DNA of 44,359 nucleotides, taken from positions 1-44,359 of IMG/VR virus record IMGVR_UViG_3300044712_001271, one strand, 5' to 3'. Below the pieces are notes generated by a model that made no database searches, was not told where the DNA came from, and worked only from the letters and a program-made list of their open reading frames with translations. The stretch comes from a virus. Positions 2 to 44,359 of the stretch are shown one piece after another. Within the stretch, counting starts at the first letter, position 1, and each line of letters starts with the position of its first letter. The position numbers were made by a program, and so were the translations under genes.

Positions 2-3000
2 AAGAAGGGGGAGGCCGCATGGGCGGCGGAACAGGCCGAGATCCAGCGCCGGCGCCTGGCCGCGGCGAGGGAGAAGCAGGCGCTGCAGCAGACCGCGCTC
101 TTCGGGGTGACCGAGTACGACGACACGATGCCCCTGTTTGCCCGGCGGGACGCTGACCCGATCGGCCGGATGCTGGAGCAGGTGGTGGCCGAGCAGCTCC
201 CCGGGGCCCGCCTCCTCGACTGGGAGCAGCACGGCCATGGGGTCACCAGCGGCCGGGCGGTGGCCGATGGGCTGATCTATCGGGTGCGGGCCGATGCCGA
301 CTCTGTGGGCTATCGCCCGGGGTGGGACGGGATCGATGAGGACGGGTGGGCCGCACGGTCTGCCGGGTTCCTGGAGGTGCGCCTGCCCGGCAGCCGGCTG
401 GACTTCAAGACTCCGAAGTTCAGCCAGCTCAAGTCGAAGCGGAAATGCACCACCGGCTACAGCTGCGGCACGACGTGCATCTCCCTGCAGAAGGAGTGCC
501 GGATCACGCCGAAGTCGGCCATCTCGAAGCAGCGCCTGCAGCAGCTGCACGCCCTGGCGAAGGAGGGGAACCCACTGGCGGACCAGCAGGCCCAGGCAGT
601 GGAGACCGCCCGCCTGCAGAAGGCCTACGAGCTGCGGGAGCAGCGGAACCTCGGGAAGCTCAAGAAGCTCATGGAGCGGCCGGAGGTGGCCGAAATGGTG
701 CGGACCGGCAAGGTGCCCACCGCCCCCGCCGGCGAGGGCCAGGGCGACCAGGGCCCGAAGGCCGGGAAGGTGCTCACCGTCTCCCCGAACGACATCGAGG
801 TGGACCCCAAGCGGTTCCAGTACAAGATCAAGTCGAACGCCCAGGGGGAGGTGGGGAGCCTCTCGGGGGTGAAGAAGTGGGACGACAACCTCGCCGGCGT
901 GATCAGCGTCTGGGAGGACCCGAAGGACGGGAAGACCTACGTCGTCAACGGGCACAACCGGCTCGGGCTGGCCCGCCGCCTCGGGGCGGAACAGGTGACC
1001 GTGCGCTACCTCCGGGCGGAGAACGCCACGGAGGCGCGGGCGATCGGGGCGATGCAGAACATCGCCGAGGGCGCCGGCACCGAGATGGACGCCGCCAAGT
1101 TCTTCCGCGACACCGGCATCAAGACCGAGCAGGAGGTGGAGGCCAAGGGCCTGCCGCTGCGCAGCGGCCAGGCCGCCAAGGGCCTCGCGCTCTCGAAGCT
1201 GCCCCCGGAGATGTTCGACCAGGTGGTGCGGGGCGATCTGAGCACCGGCCGCGGCGCGATCATCGGCGGATCGGGCCTCTCCACTGCGAAGCAGCGGGAG
1301 ATCGGGAAGATGCTCCGCCAGCGGAAGAGCATCAGCGACGGCACCCTGCAGGAGTACGTCGAGCACCTTGCCGCCAGCGAGTCGAGGAAGCAGACCACCC
1401 TCGACATCTTCGGGTCAAGCGAGGAGACCGTGGACAACGGCTTGATCCGCGCTGACCTGGCGGCGAGCCTCAAGCGCAAGCTCAAGAGCGAGCGCAGGCT
1501 CTTCGCCACGGTGGCCCGCAGCAGGGCCGCGCAGGAGCTGGAGGAGCGGGCCGGCAACCAGATCAACGTCGAGCGCAGCGCCGACGTGGCCAACGAGGCC
1601 GACCAGGTGCTCAGGGTGTTCGATCAGCTCAAGGGCACCACCGGGCCCGTCAGCGCCGCCCTCAACCGCGCCGCCGAACGGGTCCAGAAGGGTGAGCCGG
1701 CGGCGAAGGTGAAGGCAGAGCTGCAGGAGGAGATCGTTCGGGCCATGGAGGAGGAGCTGGAGGCCGCCGGCCTGCGGAAGAAGCCCAACACCGAGGCCCC
1801 GACGATGAGCATGTTCGACGCGGCCGACGCCCGCCTCGATGCCCTGGTGGCCCGCCTCGACGCCAAGAAGTGCGTCAAGGGCACCCCCTGCGGCAACACC
1901 TGCATCCCCAAGGGCCGGCAGTGCAAGGCGACCGGCAGCCCGGAGGGCACGAAACGGCTCACGGAGCTGGTGAAGGGGGAAGAGGACCAGCCGGCCAAGG
2001 GGCAGGCGGCCCCCGCGGCGCCGGCCAGCCCCGAGCGGGAGCAGGGGGGCGGCGGTGGCTTCCGCTCCATCGCCCGGGCAGCTGGCCGGGCCCTCGGGCA
2101 GGCCCTGGCCCGCCTGCTGGGCCGCGGCGGTGGCGCGCAGGCCCCGGAAGCGGCGGCTGCGCCCGCCGAAACCGTGCAAACCGTGCGCGAGCCCCAAGCG
2201 CCACCGGCACCGGCCGCCCGCGAAACCGTGCAAACCGTGCGCAGCGCCCAAGCGAAAGCAGCCCCCAAGCAGGGCAAGGCCCCTTCGGGTGACCTTGGAA
2301 AATGGGAGTGGGAAGAGGTCAGCTTCGACAGGGATTATGTCCGCCGCTACGAAACGACCCTAAGCAGCCCCGTAGAAGTAGACGGCAAGCAGCACAAGAG
2401 CATCCATTTCGACATAACAAGCGATGAATCAACCTATGGAGAAAAGCAGAAGCGGCTTTTAAGTAAAGCCGGATTCAACCCTCCCGAGGGGGGCGGGACG
2501 AAGGCCATCGAGCTCAGTTTCGAGGTTGGCGTAGGTGAGGGCTCCGGCGACTTCAGCCGTATTGAGTTTGCCGACCCCAGGGTGTCGCGGCGGGTAGCGC
2601 TTGAAATCGCCAAGCGGATTAAGGCCCGGATTGCTGACATGCCTGACGGAACCATCGTGGCGGCCGGGTATTGGAAGGACGACGGGGCTGGAGCAGAAAG
2701 GAGGCGCCTGTACGAGGCCGCCGGTTTCTCCTTCTACGAGCAGGACCCGGAGGACACCGCCCCCAACGGCTTCGCCATCGTCAGGGGCGGCAAGCTCCAC
2801 CGCTTCGAGCGGGGCCGGCAGGACTCAGCCGGCGATGCCGAGATCGATCTCGATGCCATGATCCTCCAGCTGCTCCAGATGGGCAGGAAGGGCAAGGCTC
2901 CAGAGGGGCGGACCGATGCGATCGAGGCCCGCCTCGACTCACTCTCCGGCTTCCTTGGGGCCCTCGGTCGCGGCGGGCAGCCGTTTGGTCTTGATCCCAC

Positions 3001-5488
3001 GCTGCCGGCACCAGGCCCAGAAGTCCTCATCAGTGGTGGGCAGAGCCGCCTCGGGCTCAGAGGTGGCGCGCGGATCCCTCATCAGCGTCATGGGGTCGGT
3101 GAATCGGCTCATAGCAGGGGTGTGCGATGGGACAAGGCTACCGCCGGCAGGAAAGGGAAACCCTGCGGCGACAGCTTCATCTCTGCAGGCTACGACTGCC
3201 ACAAAGGGGAAAGCGGTCAGCGGTCAACGACGCGGGACACCAACTATCCGATCAACGCCCAGACCCTTGGAGTGAGCGAAGAGGAGGCAGAGGACACTCG
3301 GCGGCAGATTCTCTTCTGGTCATACGAACAACACCGGAAGTATCAATGGGCTCAGATCAAAAGAGCTCAATCACAAGGGCTTGAGCTGGATCACTACAGC
3401 CGCTATGAGCTGGAGACCGAAGCAATGCTAAGGGAGTCTATCCCGACCCTAAGAGAGAGGGAAGTCGTCAGCGACGAAAAGCTGGCCAGCTTCGAGCGAG
3501 TATTTAACGGCTCAATCCCCGCATACGAGGGTGAAATCTACCGGGGTATGTCGTTTCAGCCAGCGTATCGGGGCCAGAACACTCCGAGCTTTACCAGCCA
3601 GGAATTAGTCGCGGCGCTCATCCGGTCAATTGAGGCGGGCGAGACGGTCGCGCACAGCACATCTTGGACGCCGGACCCAGCGGTGGCGATGAGATTCTTC
3701 GCGAACCCTAAGCTCCCCTACGATAACGTCATCCTGAAAATCAGAGACAACCGCCTGGCCGTCCCTGTCACGGATGCGACCTACGAGAAGAAGGAAAAGG
3801 AGATTCTGATGCCGCCTGGCGTCAGAATGAAGGTGGTGTCTGTGACCGAAAAGGAGCGCGGTGTGGATGTCTACTACGCCGCTCTGAAAGAAACCAGGAC
3901 ACTGCAACAGCCTTACATTGAGATCGAGGTACAAGTGCAGGCGACGCAACACACGCCAGGGGTCCGGCGGCAAGATCAAGCCGATGTGATCGAGGCTCGG
4001 ATTGAGGCCCTGGCTGAGCGGCTCGACGCCCGCCGCAAGGTCCCGCAGTCGCCGGGGCAGATGAGCCTCTTCGGCGAGGGCACAGGGAAGCCCTGCGGGG
4101 AGTCGTTCATCTCCGCCGGCAAGGAGTGCCACAAGGGGGGAGGCGGGGCCCCGCAGAGCGCAGGCAAGGCCCCCCCGACCCGGGAGGAGCGGGTGGCCGA
4201 GCAGGAGCGCCAGATCGCCGAGGTGCGGGCCCGCAGGGCGGAGCAGGACAAGCGCGCTCTCGCGCCCAACGAGATCCCCATCACCGAAGGGGACATCGAG
4301 GGCATGGAGAGGGCCCGGGAGATCATGGCCGGCACCCGGAACCCCAGGGCCGAGCTTGAAGCGTGGGCCAGGGCCCAGGCAGAGCAGGAGACCGCGGCCA
4401 AGGCCAAGGCTGAACCCCCGGCCGAGAAGCGTCCCTTCGCCACCCCTGACGAGCTCGACAGCCGCCTGGCCATGGCCGCCCATGCCGGCACCTCCTTCGA
4501 CCCGGAGAAGCGCGGCCGGCAGCACCAGGAGGAGTACGCCGCCCACCTGAACACCCTCTACCAGGGCCTGCAGAAGGAGATCAGCTCCCCCGAGCAGCAG
4601 GCCACCCTCGACACCGAAATGGCGGCATACAAGCAGGGCTTCACGGCCCGCTACAAGGCGTGGCTGTCGGCCAAGAGCCGGGTCGTCTCGCCCATGATTG
4701 CCGGCCCCAGCAACTTCCCTGTCCGACGGATGGAGAAGCGCAACGAGTCGGAGCGCCGTCGCTTCAACGAGCTCACCGAGTACCAGACGAAGGCCCAGAC
4801 GGCGATCCGCCGCAAGCTGCAGCGGGGCCTCCCCCCCGAGCAGGCGCGGGACCAGGAGTTCCGCGAGTACACCCGAGACTTCGGCCGCAGCATCCAGACC
4901 GTGAAGGAGATCGACGCCGGGCGGTCGCCGTTCAGCCGATCCGCTTTCACCACCTCGATCCACGGCAAGCTCACCCGGCTGGCGGAGAAGGGAGACGTGG
5001 AGCTGGTCACCCGGCTCCTCGATCACCTTCATGCCGAGCAGTCGGTGATGAGGAAACCGCTCTTCACTCCCCGCCATTCGATCTGGGATCTGCGCGACAC
5101 TGCTCGCTCTCAGCGCTCGAAGCAGGAGAAGGCCGCCGCCGCCCAGCAGCAGCAGGGCCCCGAGGAGTTCGCCCACGGGCAGATCGAACGCGACTTCGAG
5201 GGGAACCGGGTCCGGATCTACTTCCAGGGCAAGCCCGACGAGACCACCCGAACCATGCTCAAGCGCTCGGGCTGGAAGTGGAGCCCCACCAATGGCGCCT
5301 GGCAGCGGATGAACACCGAGAACAGCGTTTATTCCGCCCGGCAGATCCTCCGGAGCCTGGAGGCTGACCGGAAGGACTCTGCCCTCGACACGGTGTCCAA
5401 CCGGATCGCCGCCCTTGGGCAGAGGCTGAAAATCCAGCCTCACCAGACTGCCGGCAGCCCCGCATCCATGGGCAGAGGTGCCGCATGA
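2..5488 (+). CDS. Giant polyvalent effector protein (ParB-like, acetyltransferase-like and ADP-ribosyltransferase regions), 5' end outside window
   Basis: The frame is open from base 2, so the gene begins left of the window; the first in-window candidate start is GTG at 107, from which it would be 1793 aa (residues below count from there). Seen in order: a cysteine motif (about 113-132); a ParB/sulfiredoxin-like domain with GHNR at 282-285; a helical region to about 560; a second cysteine module; an acetyltransferase-like region ending in RRLYEAAGF (about 866-874); a third module; an ART domain with R1146, S-T-S 1184-1186 and E1230-x-E1232 followed by LMPPG; a fourth module; a phage domain with SPMIAGPSNFPVRR (about 1529); and a C-terminal domain with GWKWSPTNGAWQR typical of large polyvalent proteins. 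This architecture matches the polyvalent proteins of phages and conjugative elements, which are thought to enter the host with the DNA. The ART call is strong from its three motifs; the acetyltransferase call is weak. Its position before the head genes fits a MuF-associated, virion-borne protein. Confidence 0.8.
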   Translation, partial: KKGEAAWAAEQAEIQRRRLAAAREKQALQQTALFGVTEYDDTMPLFARRDADPIGRMLEQVVAEQLPGARLLDWEQHGHGVTSGRAVADGLIYRVRADADSVGYRPGWDGIDEDGWAARSAGFLEVRLPGSRLDFKTPKFSQLKSKRKCTTGYSCGTTCISLQKECRITPKSAISKQRLQQLHALAKEGNPLADQQAQAVETARLQKAYELREQRNLGKLKKLMERPEVAEMVRTGKVPTAPAGEGQGDQGPKAGKVLTVSPNDIEVDPKRFQYKIKSNAQGEVGSLSGVKKWDDNLAGVISVWEDPKDGKTYVVNGHNRLGLARRLGAEQVTVRYLRAENATEARAIGAMQNIAEGAGTEMDAAKFFRDTGIKTEQEVEAKGLPLRSGQAAKGLALSKLPPEMFDQVVRGDLSTGRGAIIGGSGLSTAKQREIGKMLRQRKSISDGTLQEYVEHLAASESRKQTTLDIFGSSEETVDNGLIRADLAASLKRKLKSERRLFATVARSRAAQELEERAGNQINVERSADVANEADQVLRVFDQLKGTTGPVSAALNRAAERVQKGEPAAKVKAELQEEIVRAMEEELEAAGLRKKPNTEAPTMSMFDAADARLDALVARLDAKKCVKGTPCGNTCIPKGRQCKATGSPEGTKRLTELVKGEEDQPAKGQAAPAAPASPEREQGGGGGFRSIARAAGRALGQALARLLGRGGGAQAPEAAAAPAETVQTVREPQAPPAPAARETVQTVRSAQAKAAPKQGKAPSGDLGKWEWEEVSFDRDYVRRYETTLSSPVEVDGKQHKSIHFDITSDESTYGEKQKRLLSKAGFNPPEGGGTKAIELSFEVGVGEGSGDFSRIEFADPRVSRRVALEIAKRIKARIADMPDGTIVAAGYWKDDGAGAERRRLYEAAGFSFYEQDPEDTAPNGFAIVRGGKLHRFERGRQDSAGDAEIDLDAMILQLLQMGRKGKAPEGRTDAIEARLDSLSGFLGALGRGGQPFGLDPTLPAPGPEVLISGGQSRLGLRGGARIPHQRHGVGESAHSRGVRWDKATAGRKGKPCGDSFISAGYDCHKGESGQRSTTRDTNYPINAQTLGVSEEEAEDTRRQILFWSYEQHRKYQWAQIKRAQSQGLELDHYSRYELETEAMLRESIPTLREREVVSDEKLASFERVFNGSIPAYEGEIYRGMSFQPAYRGQNTPSFTSQELVAALIRSIEAGETVAHSTSWTPDPAVAMRFFANPKLPYDNVILKIRDNRLAVPVTDATYEKKEKEILMPPGVRMKVVSVTEKERGVDVYYAALKETRTLQQPYIEIEVQVQATQHTPGVRRQDQADVIEARIEALAERLDARRKVPQSPGQMSLFGEGTGKPCGESFISAGKECHKGGGGAPQSAGKAPPTREERVAEQERQIAEVRARRAEQDKRALAPNEIPITEGDIEGMERAREIMAGTRNPRAELEAWARAQAEQETAAKAKAEPPAEKRPFATPDELDSRLAMAAHAGTSFDPEKRGRQHQEEYAAHLNTLYQGLQKEISSPEQQATLDTEMAAYKQGFTARYKAWLSAKSRVVSPMIAGPSNFPVRRMEKRNESERRRFNELTEYQTKAQTAIRRKLQRGLPPEQARDQEFREYTRDFGRSIQTVKEIDAGRSPFSRSAFTTSIHGKLTRLAEKGDVELVTRLLDHLHAEQSVMRKPLFTPRHSIWDLRDTARSQRSKQEKAAAAQQQQGPEEFAHGQIERDFEGNRVRIYFQGKPDETTRTMLKRSGWKWSPTNGAWQRMNTENSVYSARQILRSLEADRKDSALDTVSNRIAALGQRLKIQPHQTAGSPASMGRGAA
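443..502 (+). repeat. Cysteine motif, copy 1 (C-x6-C-x3-C-x6-C type)
   Basis: Encodes KCTTGYSCGTTCISLQKECR. Four cysteines could form a zinc knuckle. Copy 2 has the same four-cysteine spacing, while later copies keep two cysteines (PCGxSFI-x5-C). It precedes the ParB-like domain and has no obvious RLDA helix before it. Confidence 0.75.
1805..1927 (+). repeat. Effector module copy 2 (helix + cysteine motif)
   Basis: Encodes MSMFD, the amphipathic helix ARLDALVARLDAKK and the motif CVKGTPCGNTCIPKGRQC. It separates the ParB-like and acetyltransferase-like regions of the giant protein, so the module acts as a punctuation element between enzymatic domains. Confidence 0.75.
2909..3208 (+). repeat. 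Effector module copy 3, interrupted
   Basis: The helix DAIEARLDSLSGF and the motif GKPCGDSFISAGYDCHKG are separated by about 65 residues, against roughly 15-20 in copies 4-6. The extra stretch contains an open reading frame on the opposite strand and looks inserted. The ART domain follows directly. Confidence 0.65.
2939..3112 (-). other. Antisense open frame within module copy 3
   Basis: From an ATG at 3112 the opposite strand reads a 57-residue peptide starting MSRFTDPMTLMRD and containing DFWAWCRQRGIKTKRLP. It reads more naturally than the Gly/Pro-rich sense frame here. It coincides with the extra stretch that interrupts module copy 3. It may be a live antisense gene, or the start of another gene captured in reverse during module shuffling. 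I cannot tell whether it is expressed. Confidence 0.3.
3983..4138 (+). repeat. Effector module copy 4 (helix + QMSLF + cysteine motif)
   Basis: A complete copy: helix DVIEARIEALAERLDARR, then SPGQMSLFGEG, then GKPCGESFISAGKECHKG. QMSLF fits the bacterial sliding-clamp-binding pentapeptide consensus. The copy sits between the ART domain and the C-terminal polyvalent-associated domains. Confidence 0.8.
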
Positions 5489-5832
5489 TCGAGATCATCC
5501 TGCCCGTGATCGCCCCCGTGGCCGCGGCGATCATCTCCGTGGGTGGCGGCATGGTGGGCGCGAAAATCTCCCGCTCAGCGGAGCAGCGCCGCAAGGCCAA
5601 GGAGGAGCAGCAGGCCCTGGGGCAGAGCGTGGCACTGCTGAACCAGGGCCTCGATGCGGTGGTGAACAAATTGGAGGAGATCCGGGCCGAGTGGCAGCTC
5701 GATAGGCGCGACTTCCACATCTGGCAGCAGCGGGTCGAGACCCGCCTCAGCCACGTCGAGGCCGCGGCGGGGGTGATGCGGGTCGTGCCGCCGATCTGCC
5801 CCTTCCCCGAAGATCCGCCCGCACGGGGCTGA
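5485..5832 (+). CDS. Small membrane-anchored coiled-coil protein
   Basis: This is a 115-aa protein whose ATG overlaps the stop of the giant effector gene (ATGA), implying coupled translation. An N-terminal hydrophobic segment (about residues 3-27, IILPVIAPVAAAIISVGGG) is followed by a basic, then heptad-rich helix (about 30-95), suggesting a single-span membrane protein with a cytoplasmic or periplasmic coiled coil. I do not recognise the family. Its place between effector genes suggests a partner in their delivery, a membrane pilot factor or an immunity factor. A holin-like role is less likely, because a holin-lysozyme pair lies at 36743-37650. These functions are inferences from position only. 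Confidence 0.6.
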   Translation: MIEIILPVIAPVAAAIISVGGGMVGAKISRSAEQRRKAKEEQQALGQSVALLNQGLDAVVNKLEEIRAEWQLDRRDFHIWQQRVETRLSHVEAAAGVMRVVPPICPFPEDPPARG

Positions 5833-5836
5833 GCCG

Positions 5837-7225
5837 ATGAGCCTGGCCGCCGTCGCTGATCGCCTGGCTGCCCTGGAGGTGCGCCTCGATGCCCGCCGCC
5901 CCCGCCAGGCCCCGGGGCAGCTGGAGCTCGGCCTGGCCACCAGCAGCGGTCAGGGGAAGCCCTGCGGGGAATCGTTCATCGCCCCGCAGAAGCAGTGCCG
6001 CAAGGGGGGCGGCAAGGCGGCTGCCCCGAAGGCGCCGGCCGCCGCACCGAAAGCCCCGGCCGCCCCCTCGAAGCCATCCCTCACTGGTCGGATGGCAGAG
6101 CTCCATGCCGAAACCCAGAAGCGGCTGGCAGAGGAGAAGGCCCAAGCAGACGCAGCACGGGAGAAGCTGGCCCGCCCCGATGGCCCGGGGGTCGTGATCA
6201 GCGGGCCCGAGCTCAGCAGCCCCGACTCAAGCGGCAACGTGCATGGGCTCCCCACCATCGACGGCCGCCCCCCCTCGAAGCGCCTCGGGGGAGGGGCCTA
6301 CGGCGACACCTACCTCTTCGAGCTCAAGGACGGCCGCCGGGCCGTGGTGAAGGTCGATCGGCTCACCAACTTCGACCCCTTGGCAGACGGAAACTCGCTG
6401 AAACCCTCCGAGAACGAGCGGATGCTCATGGTGCAGCGCGAGCTGGCCATGCTCACGACCGCCGCCGCCGTCGGGGTCGCCCCCCGCCCGCTGAGCACAG
6501 CCGTCAGCAAGCTGCCGGACGGGCGCTTCGCGTTCGCCTACGAGTTCCAGCCTGGGGCGACCCTGACGAAGGATCACACCACCAACGAGCTTACCGAGCA
6601 GGCCGCGGCGATTCTGTCCCGGCCTGGGGCGATGGGCCGCTACGCCGAGGGCATCGCCAGGCTGGCCAGGGCGATGGCAGAGGCCGGCCTGGAGCACCGC
6701 GACGAACACGGCGGCAACCTGCTGCTGCTGGAGGACGGCACCCCCCAGCTGCTGGACTGGGCCATGGCCAAGGATGTCCCTACGACTGCGCAACAACAGG
6801 GCCTCACCGAAAGCCGCCTACTGGGAGTGTTCGGCGACATGGTGGGCGTGACCCGTGCGGGGCCTGGTGGGCGGCCGGCGCTTGCCATCGATGACGCCAT
6901 CAAACGGGCCTACAAGGCCCAGTTCGCCGGAGATGAAGAGCTGGAGGACTGGGTGATGCAGCAGAAGAAGGGGCGGGACCCGACCGAGCGAATGTCATCG
7001 GAGGAGTTCCGAGAGCGCATGAACCTGGCCAACCAGATCCAGAGGCAGAACAAGGGAAAGCGCTTCATCTGGGCGCAGATCGAGGCGGGCCTCAGTCCCA
7101 AGCCCCCTCCGGATGTGCTGGAGCAGGCCCTCGGGGCCGCTGACCGGGCTTTCGGCCCCGAAGACCTCGCGCAGATGCGCCGAGAGATCGACCAGCACAT
7201 GGCTGCATGGAGGGGCAACCCATGA
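5837..7225 (+). CDS. Phage effector with shared N-terminal module and protein kinase-like domain
   Basis: A 462-aa protein. Residues 1-60 are the shared module (helix VADRLAALEVRLDARR, then PGQLELGL, then GKPCGESFIAPQKQCRKG). An Ala/Pro/Lys-rich linker and a helix follow. The kinase-like domain begins at about 147: glycine-rich loop GGGAYGDTY (151-159), candidate ATP-binding lysine K172 in VVKVD, catalytic HRD (287-289) with N294, and D307 in LLDWA, where most kinases have DFG. The key residues are present, so it is probably an active Ser/Thr-type or small-molecule kinase; the substrate is unknown. It starts 4 bases after the membrane protein stop and its stop overlaps the next ATG. Its function in the virion or the infected cell is inferred from the module it shares with the neighbouring effectors. 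Confidence 0.75.
   Translation: MSLAAVADRLAALEVRLDARRPRQAPGQLELGLATSSGQGKPCGESFIAPQKQCRKGGGKAAAPKAPAAAPKAPAAPSKPSLTGRMAELHAETQKRLAEEKAQADAAREKLARPDGPGVVISGPELSSPDSSGNVHGLPTIDGRPPSKRLGGGAYGDTYLFELKDGRRAVVKVDRLTNFDPLADGNSLKPSENERMLMVQRELAMLTTAAAVGVAPRPLSTAVSKLPDGRFAFAYEFQPGATLTKDHTTNELTEQAAAILSRPGAMGRYAEGIARLARAMAEAGLEHRDEHGGNLLLLEDGTPQLLDWAMAKDVPTTAQQQGLTESRLLGVFGDMVGVTRAGPGGRPALAIDDAIKRAYKAQFAGDEELEDWVMQQKKGRDPTERMSSEEFRERMNLANQIQRQNKGKRFIWAQIEAGLSPKPPPDVLEQALGAADRAFGPEDLAQMRREIDQHMAAWRGNP
5846..6007 (+). repeat. Effector module copy 5 (helix + QLELGL + cysteine motif)
   Basis: A complete copy at the N-terminus of the kinase-like protein: RLAALEVRLDARR, PGQLELGL and GKPCGESFIAPQKQCRKG. QLELGL closely resembles QLVLGL, the sliding-clamp-binding peptide of E. 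coli Pol IV. Confidence 0.8.
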
Positions 7226-8646
7226 CCACCCCGGAGCGGCTGCAGCTGCTGGCCAGGGCTGTGGCGGCGGAGCGCCGGGGCGACCTGGCGGCCTACGAGG
7301 CCCTGCGAAAGCGCCAGCTGGCCATGATCCCCCTCCCGCCGGCGGGGGAGAGCCTGGCCGAGCGGATGCTCGCTGGTGCCGCCCCGGTGCCCCCCCAGGG
7401 CTCGCGGCTCGCCGACGTGGCCGACCGCCTGGCGGGCCTGGAGGGCCGCCTCGATGCCCGGCGGAAGGCCAGCCCCGGCCAGCTGGCCCTGGGCCTCGAC
7501 GCCCCCCCAGACCGGCCCGGAGTGCCCTGCGGGGAGTCGTTCATCAGCGCCGACAAGACGTGCCGGATCGGGCAGGCCGCCACCCCGGCGGCGCCCCCGG
7601 CCGCGGCGGACAGCTACCAGCCCCGGCCGATCACCGAGCACATGCTGGCCGGCGAAAGCGCATCAGTCCGGCCGGAGCAGTTCGAGGAATGGCTGGGAGC
7701 CCTTGAGGCGCTGCCGGGCCTCACCGGTGAGCACGCCAGGCGGCTGAGGGAGTTCGCCAACAAGTCGCAGATGCAGGTGCTGATCGTCAATTCAGGATCG
7801 AGCATGCTCAACACATGGAGGGACACCAGCAACTTGGAGCAGCAGCTGCTGCGCCGCTCAACGGATTGGTCAGGCAACGATCCCCCTTTCGGCGAGCAGC
7901 TCCGTGCCGTCAGGCAGGCCATCAACAAGGGGGATCCAGTCGATCCGGTCCTGGAGGCCCGGATGCGGCGGGTGATGAGTCTCCCGGCCGAAAACGCAGG
8001 CCTCGCCTACAGGGCGGTGCCCCTGATCGTGGTTCATGGCGGAGCGATGGAAACTGGCACCAATCCCCAGCGACTCTCCGAGACGCAACCAACCCCCGAA
8101 GCTATCGCGATTCATCGAGCCAAGATTGCGACGGCGACCCTGGCCTATTCCGCCATGGGGTCAGAAGAGAAGCGCCGGGCCGCGTTCAAGCAGTTCATGG
8201 AGGAGAAAGGGAAGTTCCCGGGGCCTGAGCGGCGCATGTACGAACGGATGTTTGAGTCATTCATGCGCAAGGATGCCCTGTATCTGACAACTACGCGGAG
8301 TGGATTCGGGGACAACATAGCCGCTTACATCCATGAGATGGGCCATCAGATCGACAACACGGCCAACCGTCGATCCCCCCCCCCGATGCGTTCGGCTTAC
8401 CGAGGCGCCATTCTCCTGGCCCCCAGCGACTACGGGCAGCTCAACCGTGAGGAGGCCTTCGCGGAGTCGTTCGTGTCCTACGTGCTGGCGCCGGAAGCGT
8501 TGAAGATCGCATCCCCCCAGACCTACGAGTGGGTGGATTCCACGGTCCAATACTCACAGGTGTGGGCCGACCGGCACTGGCTGACCGATGATCAGCGGGC
8601 CAAGGCTGACGGGATGACGCCTGCCGCCGTGAGGGCCGCCGCATGA
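7222..8646 (+). CDS. Phage effector with shared N-terminal module and zincin metallopeptidase domain
   Basis: I chose the ATG at 7222 because it overlaps the preceding stop as ATGA; an in-frame ATG at 7207 would add five residues. From 7222 the protein is 474 aa. Residues about 65-117 carry the shared module (VADRLAGLEGRLDARR, PGQLALGL, GVPCGESFISADKTC). The C-terminal half contains HEMGH (H371-H375), the HExxH zinc motif, followed about 45 residues later by REEAFAESFVSYVL, which can supply the third zinc ligand. This matches zincin-like peptidases found in polyvalent and toxin-type phage proteins. It probably cleaves a host or phage protein; the target is unknown. It is translationally coupled to the kinase gene and to the small gene that follows. 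Confidence 0.75.
   Translation: MTTPERLQLLARAVAAERRGDLAAYEALRKRQLAMIPLPPAGESLAERMLAGAAPVPPQGSRLADVADRLAGLEGRLDARRKASPGQLALGLDAPPDRPGVPCGESFISADKTCRIGQAATPAAPPAAADSYQPRPITEHMLAGESASVRPEQFEEWLGALEALPGLTGEHARRLREFANKSQMQVLIVNSGSSMLNTWRDTSNLEQQLLRRSTDWSGNDPPFGEQLRAVRQAINKGDPVDPVLEARMRRVMSLPAENAGLAYRAVPLIVVHGGAMETGTNPQRLSETQPTPEAIAIHRAKIATATLAYSAMGSEEKRRAAFKQFMEEKGKFPGPERRMYERMFESFMRKDALYLTTTRSGFGDNIAAYIHEMGHQIDNTANRRSPPPMRSAYRGAILLAPSDYGQLNREEAFAESFVSYVLAPEALKIASPQTYEWVDSTVQYSQVWADRHWLTDDQRAKADGMTPAAVRAAA
7414..7572 (+). repeat. Effector module copy 6 (helix + QLALGL + cysteine motif)
   Basis: A complete copy near the N-terminus of the metallopeptidase: RLAGLEGRLDARRK, PGQLALGL and GVPCGESFISADKTCRIG. 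It has the same order and spacing as copy 5, though the domains that follow are unrelated. Confidence 0.8.
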
Positions 8647-41147: not shown

Positions 41148-42164
41148 TCAGCCCGCAACCTTGCGGGGGGTGGCCGCGGCGGCGGCGGCCTGGAGGCGGT
41201 TCTCGATCTCCTGGAACCGCTCGGGGGTGATGTTCACGTCGGCGAGCTCGGCCTCCAGGGCCAGCCGCTCGGCCTTGCTCAGCCATCCAGGCGGCGGGCC
41301 GGATTGGGCAGACGTGGCGGTGGCGGCACCGGGGGGGCGAGAGGGGGGGGCCGCTCTCCCCCGCCGGCCAGCCGCCGGGGCCCCGTGGGGGCCCTCGGCG
41401 CCGCCGCCGTCCTCCTCTTCCGGAGCGATGCCCAGCAGCAGCTGCACCAGCACCCGCCGGGCCGTGGTGAGCGCCATGCTCACCCGCTGGTGCTGGGAGG
41501 CCATGGAGCTGTCCGCCGGCGGCGCCGACCAAAGCCCGGAGCTGATCGCACCGCCCCCGGAGTGCAGCGCCAGGGCCACCACGGTGATGTCGCCCGGGTG
41601 GGGCGGGGGCACCCTCACGCAGACGATCGAGATCCCGTGCTCCCCGGCCTTGTAGGCCGCGGCCATCACCGCGCCGAGATCCGCATACCCGTAGCTCACC
41701 TCCTGCGAGGCCCTGCCCTCCCGCTCCTTGGTCTTGAACGCCGCCCCCCTGTTCTTCTGCACGAGCTGGAGGCTGGCCTGGAACTTCGCCAGGGCCCCCC
41801 AGAGCTCCGCCTGCTGGGCCGGGGTGGGCTTGTAGCCGATCAGCGCCTCGATCGAGTAGGGGTCAGGGCCTGCAGGCCCCTGCGCCATGGCCTGCGCGTC
41901 CGCCACGGCCGCGGCCATGCCCTGCAGCTGGTGGTCGATGCTGTCCAGCCGGCCCCCGACCACCTGCGCGAAGGCCTCCAAGGCCCGGATCTGCTTGTGC
42001 GCTCCCTGTGCCCAGCTGCGCACGCGGCTGAGGTCGTCCTCCCCTGTGGATGCACCAGCAGGGGCGTTCTGACTGTTGGTGGGGCGCCCTGCGGCGGGGG
42101 TGTCGTCAGAATCCGACAGTTGGTGCTGCACATCTGCAGAATGCTGCAGCGTTGACGGTTCCAT
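41148..42164 (-). CDS. ERF-family single-strand annealing protein
   Basis: I placed the start at ATG 42164, giving 338 aa. The N-terminus is disordered. The ERF core runs from about residue 105 to 265, with a helix ALAKFQASLQLVQKNRGAAF, the YGYADLGAVMAAAYKAGEHG signature, and SMALTTARRVLVQLLLGIAPEEED, which matches the classic ERF ending. A Pro/Gly linker and a short C-terminal helical domain follow. It anneals single strands in recombination and replication. As first gene of the leftward early operon it diverges from 42253. Confidence 0.8.
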   Translation of the reverse strand: MEPSTLQHSADVQHQLSDSDDTPAAGRPTNSQNAPAGASTGEDDLSRVRSWAQGAHKQIRALEAFAQVVGGRLDSIDHQLQGMAAAVADAQAMAQGPAGPDPYSIEALIGYKPTPAQQAELWGALAKFQASLQLVQKNRGAAFKTKEREGRASQEVSYGYADLGAVMAAAYKAGEHGISIVCVRVPPPHPGDITVVALALHSGGGAISSGLWSAPPADSSMASQHQRVSMALTTARRVLVQLLLGIAPEEEDGGGAEGPHGAPAAGRRGRAAPPSRPPGAATATSAQSGPPPGWLSKAERLALEAELADVNITPERFQEIENRLQAAAAAATPRKVAG

Positions 42165-42252
42165 GCAGGTTCTGCGGCCTCGCCGCCTTGCTGCACCGGA
42201 TCCTAGCCGCCATCCATGCGTCTGAACGCGCACCCCTGAGGACGGTTCCCCG

Positions 42253-42477
42253 ATGCCTATTCCTGAGCTCACCGTCAACCGCGCAAACGGCGTGCTGGAG
42301 ATCCGGACGGACAACGAGGCCCAGGCCGATCAGGTGTGGATCGAACGGGAGGCCTGGCTGCGCCGCTTCCCAGCTCAGACCCTGCGCCTGATCTGGACTG
42401 ATGCCGAAGACCCCCAGTGTCAGGCCGTGATCGAGTTCAGCCCTCAGATGTCGAGCGAGCTGCAGCCGATCGGCTGA
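42253..42477 (+). CDS. Small hypothetical protein
   Basis: A 74-aa protein (MPIPELTVNRANGVLEI...), beta-rich at first, with WIEREAWLRRFPAQTLRLIW. It diverges from the ERF gene across an 88-base gap and overlaps the 303-aa gene tail-to-tail by 41 bases. It is unrecognised. Confidence 0.5.
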   Translation: MPIPELTVNRANGVLEIRTDNEAQADQVWIEREAWLRRFPAQTLRLIWTDAEDPQCQAVIEFSPQMSSELQPIG

Positions 42478-43585: not shown

Positions 43586-43963
43586 ATGAATCCCCTTCCT
43601 GGCGACACTGAGGGGCGGGAAGTCCTACTGCGATTGCTGCAGGAGGAATACGCCCATGTGCAACAGCAGAACCAACGGCTGACCAGGCTATCGAGCAGCC
43701 TTGATCAGATCGCCGCCGAGGACAATTCCATTGTCTCGGACATAGCTCGGGAGCTGGTGAAGTGTCGCGCTTCCAGCAACGCATTCGAGGCGCATCAGCA
43801 CTACACGGCCTGCCAGAACCTCCTGGAGGCGAGGGCTGATCTGCTGGAGCGCAGCGACGAGCTGATGGCTCGGGTTGATTCGATTGTGGACGATTTGACC
43901 GCGGGATCGGTTCAGCGGTTGAGCCGCTCTGCCCAGCATGGTGAGACCCAGCGCCATGGCTGA
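43586..43963 (+). CDS. Small coiled-coil early protein
   Basis: A 125-aa, almost wholly helical protein with heptad-like repeats (EYAHVQQQNQRLTRLSSSLD; LLEARADLLERSDELMARVD). I chose ATG 43586; the upstream extension to 43466 would run through the hairpins and is not protein-like. It overlaps the replication gene by 8 bases. It may be a partner of that protein; the family is unrecognised. Confidence 0.6.
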   Translation: MNPLPGDTEGREVLLRLLQEEYAHVQQQNQRLTRLSSSLDQIAAEDNSIVSDIARELVKCRASSNAFEAHQHYTACQNLLEARADLLERSDELMARVDSIVDDLTAGSVQRLSRSAQHGETQRHG

Positions 43964-44359
43964 GTTGAGGCGAGCGGCTCTGACGCAGATCCCGGTCGTT
44001 CTGCTGGACGAGGCGATGGATCTCGGCCGCATGGGCAAACCCCTTGTGGTCGTGTATCTCCGGCTGTGGGACTACGCCGGCGACCGCGACACGGCATTTC
44101 CCTCCGTCGATCGCCTGGCCCTCGAATGCCGGATGAAGGACGACGACGTGCGCTGGTGCCTCCAGTGGCTTAGCCGGCGGGGGTGGGTGCGGCGGCAGGA
44201 CCGCCCGGGCCAGACCACCCTCTTCCACGTCCGCACCGAGCGACCCCTCCCCCCCGAGGGGGATCCCCCCCGAAGGGGATCCCCTTCCAGGGGGGCCCAT
44301 GAAACACAACCCTCATCGCGACAGCGTTCTCAGTCAGACCCCTCCCCCCCGAGGGGGAT
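43956..44359 (+). CDS. HTH replication initiation-like protein, 3' end outside window
   Basis: Open from ATG 43956 to the window end (134 codons visible). The N-terminal 90 residues are a winged-helix/HTH domain of the type at the front of phage replication proteins: QIPVVLLDEAMDLGRMGKPL, VVVYLRLWDYAG, FPSVDRLALECRMKDDDVRW, CLQWLSRRGWVRRQ. A Pro/Arg/Ser-rich linker begins at about 97. That linker is encoded by repeated G/C runs including an exact 23-bp direct repeat. Lambda O has a similar plan, with origin iterons within the gene. The call depends on the HTH and gene order. Confidence 0.6.
   Translation, partial: MAELRRAALTQIPVVLLDEAMDLGRMGKPLVVVYLRLWDYAGDRDTAFPSVDRLALECRMKDDDVRWCLQWLSRRGWVRRQDRPGQTTLFHVRTERPLPPEGDPPRRGSPSRGAHETQPSSRQRSQSDPSPPRG
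44242..44264. repeat. 23-bp direct repeat, copy A (in-gene origin candidate)
   Basis: Starts GACCCCTCCC and ends GAGGGGGAT. An identical copy is at 44337-44359. It is followed by further GGGGATCCCC-type palindromic runs (44258-44285). Confidence 0.6.
44337..44359. repeat. 23-bp direct repeat, copy B (cut by window end)
   Basis: Identical to copy A, with 95 bases between the two starts. It ends exactly at the window edge, so the repeat may be longer and more copies may follow. Confidence 0.6.

What the first reader, a model, noticed from the sequence alone, without database searches (positions are those of the whole stretch)
44242..44359. Exact 23-bp direct repeat inside a replication gene: origin candidate
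Two identical 23-bp copies and intervening GGGGATCCCC-type palindromes lie in the linker region of an HTH replication protein, as lambda iterons lie in gene O. The second copy reaches the window end, so the array may continue.
Basis: partly seen in the sequence, partly recalled or inferred. Interest (0 to 1): 0.5.

Follow-up and report, generated by a model that had tools for sequence, protein, structure and literature searches.

The report
Phage replication origin inside initiator gene
The repeats are very probably the start of a phage replication origin hidden inside the gene for its own initiator protein, as in phage lambda, here in a poorly studied group of probable cyanobacterial phages; the layout is known, and the new value is a natural set of initiators with their candidate binding sites.

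Summary
In detail: GACCCCTCCCCCCCGAGGGGGAT occurs exactly at 44242-44264 and 44337-44359 and is the longest exact repeat in the 44,359-base record. The record ends inside copy 2, so relatives must show what follows.
The gene encodes a helix-turn-helix protein related to lambda-O-type initiators. Each copy is a C-tract/G-tract dyad; the copies are 95 bp apart, hence read in different frames. A DNA-only scan for the unit found 67 viral loci; 20 encode this domain, and in all 20 the unit lies in that gene on its coding strand. A profile search gave 44 loci, 33 distinct: 31 run past the array and show repeats or dyads there, two end inside it. Many have dyad steps 20-16-25-25, then an A+T-rich tract. 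Silent positions in the array are unusually conserved.
Closest: ori-lambda; but L072 and L105 have a DnaB-like helicase gene next. Binding and origin activity are untested. New member of a known kind; distant relatives use other repeats in the same place.

The parts
43938..44359 (+). O-like replication initiator gene, 5' part only (open at the record end); ATG at 43938, more likely start ATG 43956
   Evidence: HTH_36 3.7e-5, 23.9 bits, just under its cutoff of 25; phrog_391 O-like 4.4e-9, phrog_270 replication initiation 1.2e-8; start inferred from the alignment to relatives and from overlap with the stop of the preceding ORF
43938..44243 (+). Predicted winged-helix DNA-binding domain
   Evidence: AlphaFold2 on 17 aligned sequences, mean pLDDT 80.8, H12-15 H20-27 H30-47 H57-64 H68-80 E84-87 E95-98; Foldseek matches generic winged-helix proteins, none at E <= 0.001
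44242..44264 (+). Iteron candidate 1 (exact 23-mer copy 1; dyad centre 44256.5)
   Evidence: a profile made from relatives only ranks 44244 first in 44 kb, 16.9 bits against 6.7 for the best site outside the array
44264..44280 (+). Iteron candidate 2 (dyad centre 44273)
   Evidence: 74% direct-repeat match; weak in the profile (4.0 bits, tenth)
44280..44296 (+). Iteron candidate 3, degenerate (CCCCTTCCAGGGGGG, centre 44287)
   Evidence: where it aligns with the third dyad of L072; not among the 12 best profile sites
44337..44359 (+). Iteron candidate 4 (exact 23-mer copy 2, cut by the record end; dyad centre 44351.5)
   Evidence: not scorable by the 22-column profile, which would need one base more
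44259..44268 (.). GGGGATCCCC junction between dyads 1 and 2
   Evidence: sequence
44275..44284 (.). GGGGATCCCC junction between dyads 2 and 3
   Evidence: sequence

Best explanation
This is the left part of an intragenic, lambda-type theta replication origin. The gene encodes a lambda-O-like initiator whose N-terminal winged helix binds, probably as a dimer, to C-tract/G-tract dyads (iterons) encoded in its own Pro/Gly-rich linker. Several bound dimers at set spacing would wrap the array and strain an A+T-rich tract that, in relatives, begins about 10 bp from the centre of the last dyad; that tract opens and a replicative helicase is loaded. In the nearest sequence found (L072) and in L105 the next gene encodes a DnaB-like helicase, so the helicase is probably phage-encoded there. 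SHOWN by computation: the repeats, their place and frames, DNA-level conservation, array geometry and A+T-rich tract in relatives, the helicase gene in L072 and L105. INFERRED: binding by this protein, dimerisation, strand opening, helicase loading, and that this record continues like L072.
For: O-like family matches. Repeats behind the same domain in all five database-phage genes checked, of 13 records hit. DNA-first scan: 67 loci, 20 with the domain, 20 of 20 with the unit inside that ORF on its coding strand. Profile scan: 44 loci, 33 distinct; in 26 of the 30 tested the linker holds the longest exact repeat of all 230-base stretches of the locus. Dyad steps 20-16-25-25 within 0.5 bp in 10 of 17 genes examined, over all three frames. 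Redrawing codons reached the observed dyad number in 0 of 2000 trials for 15 of 17 relatives. Silent-site conservation. A+T-rich stretch, GC 0.28-0.40 over 40 nt, in 16 of 17 genes. L072, the only viral record found with the exact core of this unit, starts inside an array, has the window's 16- and 14-bp steps, continues 18-25-25, and then shows an A+T-rich stretch (GC 0.35) and a DnaB-like helicase gene. Lambda: iterons bind O dimers and the neighbouring 40-bp A+T-rich region opens (PMC5043065, passages); O contacts the distal Gs of the G-tracts (PMC7466680, passages).
Against: The record ends in the array, so its A+T-rich tract and most of the protein are unseen. The window's third step is 64.5 bp and its dyad 3 is weak; dyad 2 scores only 4.0 bits with the relatives' profile, below several unrelated sites, and dyad 3 is not in the top 12. 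Permuting the window's own linker codons gave four dyads in 87 of 5000 trials and a 21-bp repeat in 14 of 5000, so the window alone is moderate evidence. L012 and L004 fail the dyad-count test. The A+T minimum is in the lowest 5% of its locus in only 20 of 30 loci, and L122 has no long exact repeat. In the A+T-rich/right element the conservation of Pro and Gly codons (0.88, 0.75) is close to what its codon use gives (0.76, 0.78). Many relatives belong to a few related groups, so shared geometry is partly shared ancestry. No P-type helicase loader was identified. 47 of the 67 DNA-first loci show no such domain. No binding data exist.
Confidence: 0.88

Rival explanations
1. The DNA repeat is a by-product of selection for a flexible Pro/Gly-rich protein linker in a G+C-rich phage.
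For: The linker is Pro/Gly rich; permuted codons of the window linker occasionally give the same dyad count (87 of 5000).
Against: The two window copies are read in different frames; relatives' dyads fall in all three frames; Pro codons in the array are identical in 0.81 of pairs against 0.49 expected from codon use there, in the domain 0.31 against 0.29; redrawing codons did not recreate the arrays in 15 of 17 relatives.
Confidence: 0.04
2. The dyads are operator or centromere-like sites at which the HTH protein represses its own operon or helps partition, not an origin.
For: Foldseek matches to the model include MarR-type regulators and a plasmid centromere-binding protein, all weak; L072 carries a ParB-like gene.
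Against: The sites lie inside the gene, not at its start; an A+T-rich tract lies beside them in relatives; family matches are to replication initiators; a DnaB-like helicase gene follows in L072 and L105.
Confidence: 0.05
3. The dyads act as hairpins in mRNA or single-stranded DNA (attenuation or priming signals) rather than as duplex protein-binding sites.
For: C-tract and G-tract arms with 2-6 nt between them could fold; not tested by folding here.
Against: Distant relatives keep the place with other repeats (L124, L125, L126); steps are kept nearly to the base pair, which suits duplex phasing; the repeat finder lists no inverted repeats in the L012 array or in the genes of KBS-S-2A, the Microcystis phage, phi2 and MD8, though it does in PotUPM1.
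Confidence: 0.04
4. The second copy is an assembly artefact at the contig end.
For: The contig ends exactly with the repeat; other contigs also stop in such arrays (L017, L099, L072).
Against: 72 bp lie between the copies, holding other dyads and about 40 bp unlike the unit; relatives have multi-copy arrays inside longer contigs. Stopping in an array is what a true repeat does to short-read assembly.
Confidence: 0.04

Closest known systems
Bacteriophage lambda ori (iterons within gene O)
   Same: Iterons inside the initiator gene; C-arm/A-run/G-arm units (lambda CCCTCAAATTGGGGGAT, L010 CCCCCAAATGGGGGAT); A+T-rich tract next to the last unit in lambda and in relatives
   Different: Arms here are longer C/G tracts; steps 20-16-25-25 in many relatives against 20-24-23 between annotated lambda iterons; a DnaB-like helicase gene rather than an identified P gene downstream in L072 and L105; A+T-rich tract often built of 14-bp repeats
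Stx-phage and other lambdoid origins with extra iterons
   Same: Number of in-gene iterons varies (6 against 4 in lambda), the protein linker lengthening accordingly (PMC7466680, passages)
   Different: Other phage group; other unit arms and spacing
Phage P22 type (O-like gene 18 followed by helicase gene 12)
   Same: O-like initiator followed by a phage DnaB-type helicase, as in L072 and L105 (P22 layout recalled, from no call)
   Different: No P22 sequence was compared
Cyanophage KBS-S-2A CPKG_00028 (hypothetical protein)
   Same: 32% identical over query residues 10-108; in-gene repeats such as CCCCCAAAAGGTGGCACCACCCCT
   Different: Annotated only as hypothetical; only one C4/G4 dyad by the criterion

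Membership tests
Lambda-type intragenic replication origin | Repeated candidate binding sites inside the initiator gene, behind its DNA-binding domain | tested here: met
   Window; relatives. Presence and place only; binding not tested
Lambda-type intragenic replication origin | Units of about 19 bp with dyad symmetry | tested here: met
   C-arm/G-arm dyads, best for copies 1 and 4; lambda iterons read from NC_001416
Lambda-type intragenic replication origin | A+T-rich unwinding tract directly beside the array | tested here: inconclusive
   Seen in relatives (16 of 17; L072); cannot be seen in the window, which ends in the array
Lambda-type intragenic replication origin | Origin activity and specific binding by the initiator | not testable with these tools
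   Needs binding and replication assays
O-like initiator protein family (PHROGs) | Significant match to O-like profiles | tested here: met
   phrog_391 4.4e-9; relatives match phrog_270, 391, 678 and 345 among others. Only the N-terminal part is present in the window
Lambda O protein proper (Pfam family of lambda O; that such a family exists is recalled) | Match to that curated Pfam family | tested here: not met
   The only Pfam match of the window fragment at E up to 1 is HTH_36; full-length L010 gave HTH_36 and GntR at E up to 0.01. Lambda O itself was not scanned
Lambda O/P replication module | P-type helicase loader gene directly after O | tested here: inconclusive
   The window ends before it. 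L072 and L105 have a DnaB-like helicase gene there. ORFs following the gene in L010, L014, L085, L101, L103, L104 and L124 matched no loader, but five of the seven matched nothing at all and two matched families of unknown function

The most novel reading that the evidence does not exclude
One phage initiator family keeps a common origin layout (in-gene array behind the winged helix, then an A+T-rich tract, in many members made of 14-bp AACAAGA repeats that could be a sequence-specific single-strand capture site) while its iteron sequence changes together with the winged helix, giving at least four repeat types. The layout and the A+T-rich repeats, not the iterons, would be the conserved core of the origin.
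Probability: 0.3. Interest if true: 0.55.

Novelty: new member of a known kind. Interest (0 to 1): 0.42.

Why it matters
Intragenic iteron origins are well known in lambdoid phages. I saw no description for this group of probable cyanophages: the search 'iteron' plus 'cyanophage' gave two papers, neither on such an origin by title and abstract; a broader search (48 papers, 10 listed) and one for KBS-S-2A (13 papers, 8 listed) listed none by title or abstract. Only open-licence papers are held and most were not opened, so this is weak evidence of absence. The 33 distinct relatives form a natural series of DNA-binding domains with candidate sites, which could be used to work out how O-type winged helices read their iterons. 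Such arrays may also interrupt short-read assembly: this record, L017, L099 and L072 all stop inside one, so such virus records may be broken at their origins.

Tried and rejected
Rejected: Pro/Gly linker as sole cause (frames, silent sites); chance; terminal repeat of the contig (copy 1 lies 95 bp before copy 2, not at the other end). Tried without result: pattern scans for two GGGGATCCCC blocks and for a stricter unit gave 0 loci; the first genome-contig scan found no relative; solved structures by sequence gave nothing credible; Foldseek gave only generic winged-helix matches, none at E <= 0.001, among them DnaD N-terminal domain and phage O proteins. One paper search for P22 genes 18 and 12 listed a single SPP1 paper, not opened. 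L072 may come from the same or a sister phage (tetranucleotide correlation 0.938; four window chunks against the rest 0.89-0.96), but its sample relation is unknown and blastn found no long shared stretch (longest 53 bp, at 74%), so I do not join them.

Rows dropped or lost: one search stopped with an error at L070, so L070, L081, L082 and L017 were not printed there (one search covers them). In one search a position filter lost the arrays of L022, L031 and L048, so the profile rests on 37 distinct units from 11 of 14 genes. One search used 11 of the 17 genes; L012, L017, L020, L041, L048 and L062 were left out. One search used 30 of 33 distinct loci; L083, L089 and L099 end too soon.

Full report
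WHAT IS THERE. The window is a whole IMG/VR virus record of 44,359 bases, classed linear. The 23-mer GACCCCTCCCCCCCGAGGGGGAT occurs exactly at 44242-44264 and 44337-44359 and nowhere else in the record. It is its longest exact direct repeat; 0 of 300 shuffles reach 23 at each of three scales, and 0 of 748 other 118-base stretches do. Each copy is a dyad: C-tract, short spacer, G-tract. Two more dyads lie between the copies (centres 44256.5, 44273, 44287, 44351.5). The GGGGATCCCC palindromes are where one dyad's G arm meets the next one's C arm.

THE GENE. The ORF from 43938 (more likely 43956) encodes a helix-turn-helix domain (HTH_36, 3.7e-5, just below its cutoff) that matches phage initiators (phrog_391 O-like 4.4e-9, phrog_270 1.2e-8). 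A model of residues 1-102 from 17 aligned sequences has mean pLDDT 80.8 and a winged-helix order of elements. Structure searches return generic winged-helix proteins, none at E <= 0.001. The dyads begin directly behind this domain.

WHY IT IS DNA, NOT PROTEIN, THAT REPEATS. The two exact copies are 95 bp apart, so they are read in different frames. In relatives the dyads fall in all three frames. With the protein held fixed and codons redrawn, the observed dyad number was reached in 0 of 2000 trials for 15 of 17 relatives; L012 and L004 are the exceptions (304 and 227 of 2000). With the gene's own codons permuted the same 15 gave 0 to 48 of 2000. For the window: 21-bp repeat 0 of 5000 redrawn and 14 of 5000 permuted; four dyads 17 and 87 of 5000. 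Among 11 relatives, four-fold codons for the same residue share the third base in 0.79 of cases in the array and 0.89 in the A+T-rich/right element, against 0.51 in the domain and 0.47 in the C-terminus; in four divergent ones 0.77 and 0.81 against 0.32 and 0.31. For proline alone: 0.81 in the array (0.49 expected from codon use there), 0.31 in the domain (0.29); for glycine 0.73 (0.50) and 0.47 (0.39). In the A+T-rich/right element proline (0.88 against 0.76) and glycine (0.75 against 0.78) are close to expectation, so those codons add little there.

RELATIVES, FOUND TWO WAYS. By protein: the first scan gave L003, whose contig also stops in the array; a two-sequence profile gave five viral loci and one contig of a Synechococcaceae MAG (L014). 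By DNA alone: ACCCCTCCCCCNNNNGGGGNA gave 67 viral loci. A seven-sequence domain profile, none of whose members came from that scan, finds the domain in 20, and in all 20 the unit is inside that ORF on its coding strand. These 20 are not independent: two are contigs already used for the profile (L017 is L003's, L055 is L010's), and six repeat a domain already seen. The other 47 show no domain; one of them, L072, is a contig that begins in the array. Of 15 loci with two or more matches 13 carry the domain; the others are L072 and L026, which looks like unrelated repeats. By a 17-sequence profile, 11 of them from the DNA scan: 44 loci, 33 distinct by DNA, many of them the same contigs as above and some near-identical. 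Of the 33, 31 run past the array and show repeats or dyads behind the domain; in L094 and L122 these are degenerate; two end inside the array. In 26 of the 30 long enough to test, the linker holds the longest exact repeat of all 230-base stretches of the locus; the misses are L088, L093, L102 and L122. Named phages: 13 records are hit; the five genes looked at (KBS-S-2A, a Microcystis phage, Pseudomonas phages phi2, PotUPM1 and MD8) all have repeats there.

ANATOMY IN RELATIVES. Of 17 genes examined, 10 have dyad steps 20-16-25-25 within half a base pair (nine; L014); L070 and L082 have 20-16-25; L020, L041 and L048 have more dyads and end 16-25-25; L012 and L017 show one dyad by this criterion. 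A stretch of GC 0.28-0.40 over 40 nt follows in 16 of 17; L017 ends before it. It is in the lowest 5% of its locus in 20 of 30 loci. In eight of the 17 a further dyad lies beyond it: 70.5 bp from the last one in six, 71 in L014, 72 in L055. In many genes the A+T-rich tract is built of 14-bp repeats starting AACAAGA, read in several frames: of 36 regions examined 18 have at least two ACAARA motifs, five have one and 13 none (among them L104, L107, L108, L110, L115-L118, L122); 25 of 30 steps are 14 bp.

A PROFILE FROM RELATIVES. A profile of 37 distinct units from 11 relatives, window excluded, puts copy 1 first in the window at 16.9 bits; the best unrelated site has 6.7. Dyad 2 scores only 4.0, dyad 3 is not among the 12 best, and copy 2 is one base too short to score. 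So copies 1 and 2 carry the case; the two dyads between them are weak.

THE NEAREST SEQUENCE. In coding orientation L072 starts in the array, has steps 16-14-18-25-25 against the window's 16.5-14-64.5, and has an A+T-rich stretch (GC 0.35) starting about 10 bp from the centre of the last dyad. Its next gene is a DnaB-like helicase (phrog_19, 3.5e-51), then come a serine integrase on the other strand, a ParB-like gene and the large terminase. The window starts in a portal gene and ends in the initiator, so L072 looks like a missing part of a similar genome; identity is not shown.

HOW IT MOST LIKELY WORKS. In lambda, iterons bind O dimers and a neighbouring 40-bp A+T-rich region opens (PMC5043065, passages), and the protein contacts the distal Gs of each G-tract (PMC7466680, passages). 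By analogy: initiator dimers bind the dyads, the filled array strains the A+T-rich tract, and a DnaB-type helicase enters. The resemblance extends to sequence: lambda CCCTCAAATTGGGGGAT, L010 CCCCCAAATGGGGGAT. In a lambdoid phage, changes in iterons that left the O protein unchanged abolished replication of a test plasmid (PMC7466680, passages); that is the experiment needed here.

WHAT DIFFERS. The Pfam match is HTH_36, and no P-type loader was found behind the gene: L072 and L105 have DnaB-like helicases, seven others ORFs without a match or of unknown function. The most distant relatives (32-39% identical domain) have other repeats in the same place: L124 ACTAGTGTCCAAAAAGCT, L125 GGGCTCAAATGAGCC, L126 TGCCAAATCTGGCACTGGGG (units picked by eye). 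Whether each domain matches its own repeat is untested.

HOST. Probably a cyanobacterium of the Synechococcus group: L014 lies in a Synechococcaceae MAG, the capsid protein's best phage match is Synechococcus phage S-CBS4 (40%), and the first-listed initiator hit is cyanophage KBS-S-2A (32%). This is inference.

VERDICT. As a kind it is known; the group, its tract-type iterons, its steps and its changed repeats are useful additions.

Noticed in passing
L010:5485-5976 (+), just upstream of the initiator gene: A 164-residue protein that is mainly a DnaB helicase N-terminal domain (PF00772, 8.8e-9) without the motor domain; it might modulate helicase loading.
   Followed up: partly
L124, L125, L126 (about 2740-2990 of each): Distant relatives carry entirely different repeat units in the same place behind the domain.
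   Followed up: partly
window 2-8646: Several consecutive ORFs share a short Cys motif of the type GKPCGESFISAGKECHKG and a helical RIEALAERLDARR-like stretch (read by eye); the 20-base repeat at 4090/7524 seems to belong to this.
   Followed up: no
window 5837-7225: ORF with a protein-kinase-like stretch (HRDEHGGNLLLLEDGTPQLLDWA), read by eye only.
   Followed up: no
window 41148-42314 (-): Erf-like single-strand annealing protein (phrog_155, 6.6e-8), near the initiator gene.
   Followed up: partly
L072:6932-8275 (+): Serine integrase on the opposite strand between the helicase and the ParB-like and terminase genes.
   Followed up: no
L088, L093, L102: Loci where another repeat (21, 24 and 48 nt) outside the initiator linker is longer than the iteron repeat.
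   Followed up: no
L017, L099, L072 and the window: Four virus contigs stop inside the same kind of array (L062/L089 stops 160 nt behind the domain), suggesting that short-read assembly breaks at these origins.
   Followed up: partly
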